A stretch of 64,000 bases of DNA from Tubiluchus corallicola. Taxonomy: Eukaryota; Priapulida; Priapulimorpha; Priapulimorphida; Tubiluchidae. Under the pieces are notes generated by a model. The model saw only the letters and a list, made by a program, of their open reading frames with translations. It did not search any database and was not told where the DNA came from. This document shows, in pieces, positions 16,601 to 19,600 of this stretch (its first letter is position 1; every line of letters starts with the position of its first letter). Location: assembly GCA_030141605.1 (NCBI GenBank), contig JAQGDQ010000120.1, forward strand, positions 522,630-586,629, written 5' to 3'. The translations under genes and the position numbers were made by a program.

Positions 16601-19600
16601 GTTTTACTGAAACTTTGCCAGTTTCGTGGGCTGTTTTGCCAAAGTGGAAGCCATAGCATTAGCTAGTTGCGCGACAAAAACGTCAATATCTCATAAACAG
16701 CAAATGAAATTTTCCATGGCTTTTTGTGCAGTTATTTTGACGAGCTTTGTCAATGTTTGAGCATTATCTAATTATTATTTTGATGTTTATCTAAAATGAG
16801 ACATAAACATAAAAATCTGAATAATTAGGGCGGAATAATTGTTATAGTACAATGAATCGAAGGTATGTGTTCTAATACGCAGACAACACAACAATTTCCA
16901 GTTTAATAAGAAAAAAGTTATTAAACAAACGAAAAGCTTGCCGCATGTTGTTTATCCTCGGGCAAACAAACATCTGAAAACAAACGGCCATTGAGATTAC
17001 TCAGTTCATGGCACGCATGACCACAAGTAGGCAAGAGGTGATAAACTTGGAGTCAAATTGAATTTGATTCTTTGAAACATGGTTCATCGTAATCATCGTG
17101 CTATCAAGGTAGTTCATTGGCTTTTCAACTGGAAGAACATGTGGCGTGATGCGCGCAGTAAGAGCTGCCATAACGAATAATATTATGGTTCAAACTAAGT
17201 TCACAGCAAACGCATGAAAATTACAATGCTAGAAGAGGTGCATGTCAGCATGAACTGAGTAGGATGGGATTCAAGGGCACTGCGTTCTTACGTAACTTCC
17301 CTAACTATTAATAGAAAACTCATTGTGTGTAAGTCACCAAGTGATTATTGAATGTGGAACCAGTGAAATTATGAATGTGGTGCTAGGGTTGAGAGGCACT
17401 ATTGCATAAATTGTCAGGCTGCTTTAATTATAATATTCATAGCATTTTTGTTGATGTGGAATTATTTGTAAATTGTAAGCCAATTAGAAAAGTGCTTTAA
17501 ATTACAGACAGGAAATCAATTTTGCTGGTTTCAATAATGTGGCTTACAATTCTAATTGGCTTACAATTTACAAATAATTCCACATCAACAAAAATGCTAT
17601 GAATATTATAATTAATGCAGCCTGACAATTTATGCAATAGTGCCTCTCAACCCTAGCACCACATTCATAATTTCACTGGTTCCACATTATAGTAATGTCA
17701 GATGCTATTCGACGTGATACGAAGGGGACACTTCATTCCAAATAATATGCATAATCCTGAAAAGTCTTTATTCTTTCTGTACATTTATTAAACTTTCTCA
17801 CTGAAATCCTAACATTTCTGCTGCTTCAGGGTCACTGCACACTGTATACTCTGGCTGTCCATGCATATTTGGAATTATGACATCTTGGTCACCTTTGACC
17901 TTCCCATTGACCTTGGGTCACCTCTAAGGCTCATAATCACTCATAATCAACCGTGTAACTACGACACGGGAATAACAATTATTACATTTTAACAAAATGA
18001 TCCTGACCTCAAACAATCATGACCCAAAGTACCATAATTTTACTAATATTCTGATGTTTAACTGCTGTCAATATTTCATTCATATCTGTCACATTCATTG
18101 CTTTAGCCCACACTCATCAACTCAAGTGCTGCAACAGGCTACATCATAGACTATGGTCAAAATTGATCTAGTGTACAAAAATTATTTCACATTTGCCAAA
18201 TCCTGGGGTAATAATCTGCTTATCAAGTTCTTTCAGCAGTCCACTATCCATGTAACCAATCTAAAACTGAATTAATAATGCTGAACTTATAACACACATT
18301 GGTTTCACAGCATCAGCCCCTGCAGTGCATGCAACCCCACGGCAGTGCAAAAATTCAACAAGTACCAAAGCAGGTGTAGCAGTAAATGGCTTATTAATTA
18401 GAGTCACATGCCATTTTCAGTGTATCTCCAAATCACATATCAAAGAAACATGGTCCACCGATAGCTTGAGGGCTGAAATTCATGCAAAACTTGCTTGAAC
18501 ACATAAAGATGAATTCTGCCTAGCATAAAACAAACATATGGATTTTTTTTATTCAAAAACCAGTTGTCTGTAAACAACAACAACAACTACAATAACGACA
18601 GCAAGAAAAACAATAATGATAGCTTTAAAGTAATTTGGTGAAACACTTAAGCCACTTTCAAAATGCGTTTAGGGGATCCACACAACATCAATTTTTATGG
18701 TAAACATTAAAAGATAATGAACAGCTTAGTTTCAAAGCTATCAAATATTAATAGGCTGTAGTTATTCCCACGCAAACATTTTTATGCCCTGCAAAAAGGC
18801 TGTTAATGTCATAATGTATTTATTGGTTATGGTGCTAAGTGTTCTACTAGTCAGTACAGCTTCATTATTTACGAATATGAGACCAAAACATTTAGCCAAA
18901 TTAAAAGGGTAAATAATAAAAAAGACAGCTAAGAAATGATGAATATTTGAATACTAGTTAGAAAACTACATATCCATAACTGGTACTAACAGGACAAAGT
19001 TTTAATTTTTCAAATAACATTTTTCAATTTGTTTGCAGTCAAAGTGCCTACACCTAACCAAAGAATTTTGAACTGTCACGTATTTTAAACCAAAAATATG
19101 ACTTTTATTAATTTCATGTAATCAAAACTTTTATGAACTATATCACAGCATTAGCTTATTGTATCTACAAGTTATTTTTTTACAAATTTCTGTGACACAA
19201 TCCACCAACAATCCCTCAAAATATTTACAAACTGGCAAAACTTGTCATATGTGCCACTTATACGACACAATAAGAAAGGTGGTAGGCATCTTGCTCTTCT
19301 GGTTAAGCTGGTACATGTATTAGGTATGTATCTAAACGAAACAGCAAGGTAAACATAAATTTTTTAACTAAATTTCTTCATTCATACGGCAATCTGTGTA
19401 GCATAGATCCCTCTGCTTCTAATGCGAATCACTGAATTATTTTAGACAGTCATGCACGTGTGTTTCTGAATAAAAGAGTGATTATCTGAAATGATTTTGA
19501 GTAATGGAGAGATGCAGTGTCAGTCTAGCTTAAATTTAGTAAGAATATGCTTCCTTTTAACGTATTTTATACTCTTATTATTTGTCCAGTTAGTATCAAA

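What the first reader, a model, noticed from the sequence alone, without database searches (positions are those of the whole stretch)
17351..17688. Near-perfect 139-bp foldback inside RPB8 intron 1
Two arms of 139 bases agree at all but one position around a 60-base spacer, while other repeats here are heavily diverged. This implies recent insertion, arm homogenisation or selection. Transcribed as part of the RPB8 pre-mRNA it would form a long double-stranded hairpin, a possible substrate for ADAR or Dicer.
Basis: partly seen in the sequence, partly recalled or inferred. Interest (0 to 1): 0.6.

Follow-up and report, generated by a model that had tools for sequence, protein, structure and literature searches.

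The report
Young single-copy intronic inverted duplication
A 139-base stretch inside an intron of an animal RNA-polymerase gene was copied backwards next to itself, most likely by a replication slip onto the wrong template, so its RNA would fold into a long hairpin; the event is of a known, ordinary kind.

Summary
Arms 17351-17489 and 17550-17688 match at 138 of 139 positions around a 60-nt spacer, in the ~13.9-kb first coding intron of RPB8 (minus strand). Chance is excluded.

It does not behave as a mobile element. In the 343.5-Mb host genome the arms are found nowhere else, by BLAST-type search to E 10 or by 30-31-mers with up to 3 mismatches. A control repeat from the same window gives about 2,000 candidates. 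There is no convincing target-site duplication.

The inner junction suggests the mechanism. The spacer ends in TAATGTGGCTTACAATT, which except for one bulged G is already the reverse complement of the left arm's inner end, and it stops where the right arm begins. Random sites of the same geometry match this well in about 0.1% of cases; the mirrored junction shows nothing. I infer that a 16-bp quasi-palindrome let a replicating 3' end switch template, copy ~137 nt of the left arm backwards and return at ATT: a young template-switch insertion (divergence 0.7%, 95% CI 0.02-3.9%).

The RNA hairpin is predicted to be very stable, and the host has ADAR- and Dicer-family sequences. Editing, small RNAs and selection are untested; no trans target was found. 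An ordinary, clean example of a known mutation type.

The parts
17351..17489 (+). left arm, inferred to be the ancestral (source) copy
   Evidence: polarity inferred
17490..17549 (+). 60-nt spacer (loop of the foldback)
17550..17688 (-). right arm, reverse complement of the left arm, inferred to be the derived copy (inserted part about 17552-17688, 137 nt)
17471..17486 (+). left-arm half of the inferred pre-existing quasi-palindrome (AATTGTAAGCCAATTA)
17535..17551 (+). spacer half of the quasi-palindrome (TAATGTGGCTTACAATT), ending at the start of the right arm; with 17553-17568 reported as a 17-bp tandem repeat
12899..26824 (-). first coding intron of RPB8, which contains the foldback
   Evidence: exon positions; identity of the protein

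Best explanation
The foldback is a young, single-locus inverted duplication made by a DNA template switch. Before the event the sequence held a short quasi-palindrome: left-arm AATTGTAAGCCAATTA and, 48 nt further on, TAATGTGGCTTACAATT. A 3' end stopped in or after the second half folded back, or switched to the opposite strand, and was extended with the left arm as template for about 137 nt. It then returned to its own template at a 3-nt match (ATT), leaving a nearly perfect reverse-complement copy. Shown: the arms, single locus, missing target-site duplication, and the seed repeat at the inner junction. Inferred: left arm ancestral, right arm derived, one main event, short-match priming. It is probably neutral; in the RPB8 pre-mRNA it would form a ~139-bp double-stranded stem that ADAR or Dicer could act on, which is not shown.
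For: Near-perfect arms at one locus only, with the search shown to find repeats elsewhere. No exact symmetric target duplication longer than 2 bp. The spacer end is a 16-bp inverted match with one bulged base to the left arm's inner end, stopping at the start of the right arm; 26 of 20,000 random sites of the same geometry do as well, and 0.07% have a 12-mer ending at the point. The mirrored junction gives at most 4 nt by prefix match. Predicted single-strand DNA hairpin of the inferred pre-event sequence, -14.2 kcal/mol. Template switching is described as creating perfect reverse-complement repeats in one event (PMC8794818); yeast foldback inversions use stems of 4-15 bp and, with Mre11/Sae2 present, large loops with median 36 nt (PMC7467729).
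Against: No related genome was available to show the ancestral state. The breakpoint was chosen after seeing the repeat, so the 0.1% figure is optimistic (1% if the seed may lie anywhere in the spacer). Simple extension from the seed would not give the extra 17 nt, so a slip or second switch must be added. The copied length slightly exceeds the longest event (128 nt; median 12) in the great-ape set of PMC7954356.
Confidence: 0.72

Rival explanations
1. A non-autonomous foldback or MITE-like DNA transposon inserted recently; the arms are its terminal inverted repeats.
For: Long terminal inverted repeats around a short core; ATGTGG occurs four times in left arm plus spacer against 0.14 expected, loosely like subterminal transposase sites. 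An asymmetric, off-register ATTAT/ATTAT pair can be drawn.
Against: No other copy in 343.5 Mb, nor of the 30-nt arm end or a 31-nt internal piece with up to 3 mismatches, although a control repeat gives ~2,000 candidates. No symmetric target duplication.
Confidence: 0.1
2. An old inverted repeat kept nearly identical by gene conversion or template-switch homogenisation, or by selection for the hairpin (for example as a hairpin-RNA or microRNA precursor).
For: Homogenisation of inverted-repeat arms is documented in yeast (PMC8604942), and the quasi-palindrome suggests an older, shorter repeat here.
Against: Documented homogenised arms there are short (7-16 bp). No Rfam match. No second locus similar to the arms, whereas Drosophila hpRNAs typically show substantial complementarity to one or a few targets (PMC10317233).
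Confidence: 0.13
3. An assembly or library artefact (chimeric foldback read).
For: Foldback chimeras occur in some library types (established knowledge); raw reads were not available.
Against: Unique sequence continues on both sides, the arms differ at one base, and a 60-nt spacer with a seed repeat at the junction is present. The whole foldback is 338 bp, short enough for a single read or fragment.
Confidence: 0.05

Closest known systems
Short-range template-switch mutations (four-point model; PMC7954356, PMC8794818)
   Same: A reverse-complement copy of neighbouring sequence, creating a near-perfect inverted repeat in one event; short matches at the switch points; potential pre-event hairpin.
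   Different: Longer than the largest event in the great-ape set (137 against 128 nt; median 12); ancestral state inferred from junctions only.
Hairpin-primed foldback inversions in yeast (PMC7467729)
   Same: A short stem with a large loop placed at the inversion junction; sequential hairpins were also reported there.
   Different: Those lead to gross chromosomal rearrangements; here synthesis returned to the original locus after about 137 nt.
Drosophila hairpin RNA (hpRNA) loci (PMC10317233)
   Same: A transcribed, young, nearly perfect inverted repeat.
   Different: No trans target found, intronic position, and no small-RNA evidence available.
MITEs and foldback transposons
   Same: Long inverted terminal repeats with a short core.
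   Different: Single copy and no target-site duplication.

Membership tests
Template-switch inverted duplication | Adjacent reverse-complement copy of local single-locus sequence | tested here: met
Template-switch inverted duplication | Short homology or quasi-palindrome at the switch point | tested here: met
   about 0.1-1% by chance depending on how strictly the position is fixed
Template-switch inverted duplication | Ancestral allele with one arm in a relative | not testable with these tools
   no related animal genome is held
MITE / foldback transposon | Multiple dispersed copies | tested here: not met
   control
MITE / foldback transposon | Target-site duplication | tested here: not met
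   only a 2-bp symmetric match and an off-register ATTAT
hpRNA / endo-siRNA locus | Complementary target locus elsewhere | tested here: not met
   E up to 10; a target matching only one siRNA could be missed
hpRNA / endo-siRNA locus | Dicer-dependent small RNAs from the arms | not testable with these tools
   no small-RNA data
microRNA precursor of a described family | Match to an Rfam family | tested here: not met
   none in the window at gathering score
ADAR-edited long dsRNA | A-to-I mismatches clustered in transcripts | not testable with these tools
   no RNA reads; ADAR-type deaminase domains are in the genome

The most novel reading that the evidence does not exclude
A very recent one-step origin of a long intronic dsRNA in a housekeeping gene, now used as a lineage-specific hairpin-RNA or editing-dependent regulator of RPB8 splicing or expression.
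Probability: 0.04. Interest if true: 0.55.

Novelty: new member of a known kind. Interest (0 to 1): 0.18.

Why it matters
It is a clean example of how one replication error can make a long, nearly perfect RNA hairpin from unique sequence, with the likely seed still readable at the junction. It adds one case at the long end of the size range and no new principle.

Tried and rejected
Mobile element: rejected on copy number and missing target duplication. Described RNA family: no Rfam match. Virus-derived: an exact 36-mer is absent from the viral collection (weak evidence, exact matches only). Reverse polarity (left arm derived): no seed at the mirrored junction. ATGTGG clustering as transposase sites: four occurrences against 0.14 expected, but borderline once all 6-mers are considered (my estimate), so not used. 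Species identity: COX1 search gave nothing, so no species-specific clock was applied. A search for the last RPB8 exon with the human sequence found nothing.

Full report
Observation. The two arms, 17351-17489 and 17550-17688, are reverse complements at 138 of 139 positions, with a 60-nt spacer. The folding energy of the stretch is 38 standard deviations below that of dinucleotide shuffles. In the rest of the window the inverted repeats are diverged (85-88% over about 80-110 nt and more than 2 kb apart, or 73-75% for a dispersed repeat) or short. Eighteen further 10-kb samples of the same genome, some partly N, show old or short foldbacks (for example 79% over 136 nt in L018) but none as long and as perfect. 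The sample is too small to say how rare such structures are genome-wide.

Place. RPB8 lies on the minus strand. Exon 1 ([24 protein letters not shown]) is at 26825-26896, exon 2 at 12815-12898 and exon 3 at 10456-10632. The joined peptide matches human RPABC3/RPB8 with E 4.4e-59. The foldback is therefore in a first coding intron of about 13.9 kb. Both orientations give the same stem; the pre-mRNA strand is predicted at -241 kcal/mol.

Copy number. The 361-bp stretch, the single arm with E up to 10, the outer 30 nt and an inner 31-mer with up to 3 mismatches all return this locus only. The same search finds 85-87% copies of another window repeat and about 2,000 candidates for a third, a SINE-sized repeat at 63680-63892. 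The left flank is single-copy too, and the right flank matches elsewhere only through a low-complexity stretch. No haplotig with a single arm appears. Withheld stretches read N, so absence cannot be absolute.

Mobile-element test. No symmetric target-site duplication of more than 2 bp exists at the arm ends; a 5-bp ATTAT pair appears only with off-register ends. With one copy and almost no divergence, a transposon would have to be the only member of its family in the genome. I reject this reading but keep it at 10%.

Junction anatomy. Tandem Repeats Finder reports a 17-bp period at 17535-17568. The reason is that the last 17 nt before the new sequence, TAATGTGGCTTACAATT (17535-17551), are a copy, with one extra G, of TAATTGGCTTACAATT, which is the inner end of the right arm and so the reverse complement of 17471-17486 in the left arm. 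If the right arm is left out of account, the remaining sequence holds a 16-bp quasi-palindrome with a 48-nt loop whose 3' foot is exactly the insertion point; the inferred sequence folds as single-stranded DNA at -14.2 kcal/mol. In the same genome 26 of 20,000 random sites of this geometry match as well and end within 2 nt of the point; 193 match as well anywhere in the spacer. The mirrored boundary has no comparable match. The outer end of the copy, CACATT/ATAG, shares ATT with ACAATT/ATAG, so a return at a 3-nt match needs no deletion. This last step is my reading of the sequence, not a test.

Mechanism. These features fit a template switch: a 3' end held at a quasi-palindrome copies its own upstream sequence, then returns. 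The 17-nt register shift means that the copying did not simply extend the 12-bp inner stem; the end re-paired at TT a little further up, or two switches followed each other. Sequential hairpins are reported for yeast foldback inversions, where stems are 4-15 bp and, when Mre11 and Sae2 work, loops are large, median 36 nt (PMC7467729). Template switching that creates perfect stems in one step, including human microRNA loci, is described in PMC8794818, and in great apes the copied length has median 12 and maximum 128 nt (PMC7954356). The present 137 nt lies just beyond that maximum.

Age. One difference in 139 gives 0.7% divergence with an exact 95% interval of 0.02-3.9%. The species is not known to me and no clock was applied; recent is a relative statement.

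Function. The genome contains three loci with adenosine-deaminase (ADAR/ADAT-type) domains and a locus with the Dicer dimerisation domain, so a long hairpin could be edited or diced. Nothing available here tests this. [quoted passage not shown] no second locus similar to the arms was found, which argues against a trans-silencing role but would miss single short sites. Neutral is the default.

Verdict. It is a single, young inverted duplication, most likely by template switching: a new example of a known kind, of low general interest.

Noticed in passing
63680-63892; also 20183-20396 and 22537-22696: SINE-sized dispersed repeat, about 80% identical between copies, about 2,000 first-look candidates in the host genome.
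   Followed up: partly
1999-2115, 4366-4444 and 4940-5049: Local trio of about 80-110 nt repeats, 85-88% identical, one copy inverted against the other two, not found elsewhere in the genome.
   Followed up: partly
123-540: Minisatellite of 57-bp units, 7.3 copies, 71% matches.
   Followed up: no
L018 7712-8099: An older foldback of the same size class, 79% identical arms with a spacer of about 120 nt, containing smaller palindromes.
   Followed up: no
10456 and below: The last coding exon of RPB8 was not found in the window with the human sequence as query, although the third exon ends in a plausible donor.
   Followed up: partly
28487-28852, minus strand: Long open frame that resembles the C-terminal part of an ASCC3/Sec63-type helicase (recognised from memory, not tested).
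   Followed up: no
17351-17549: ATGTGG occurs four times in 199 nt against 0.14 expected from the window; unexplained, borderline after multiple testing.
   Followed up: partly
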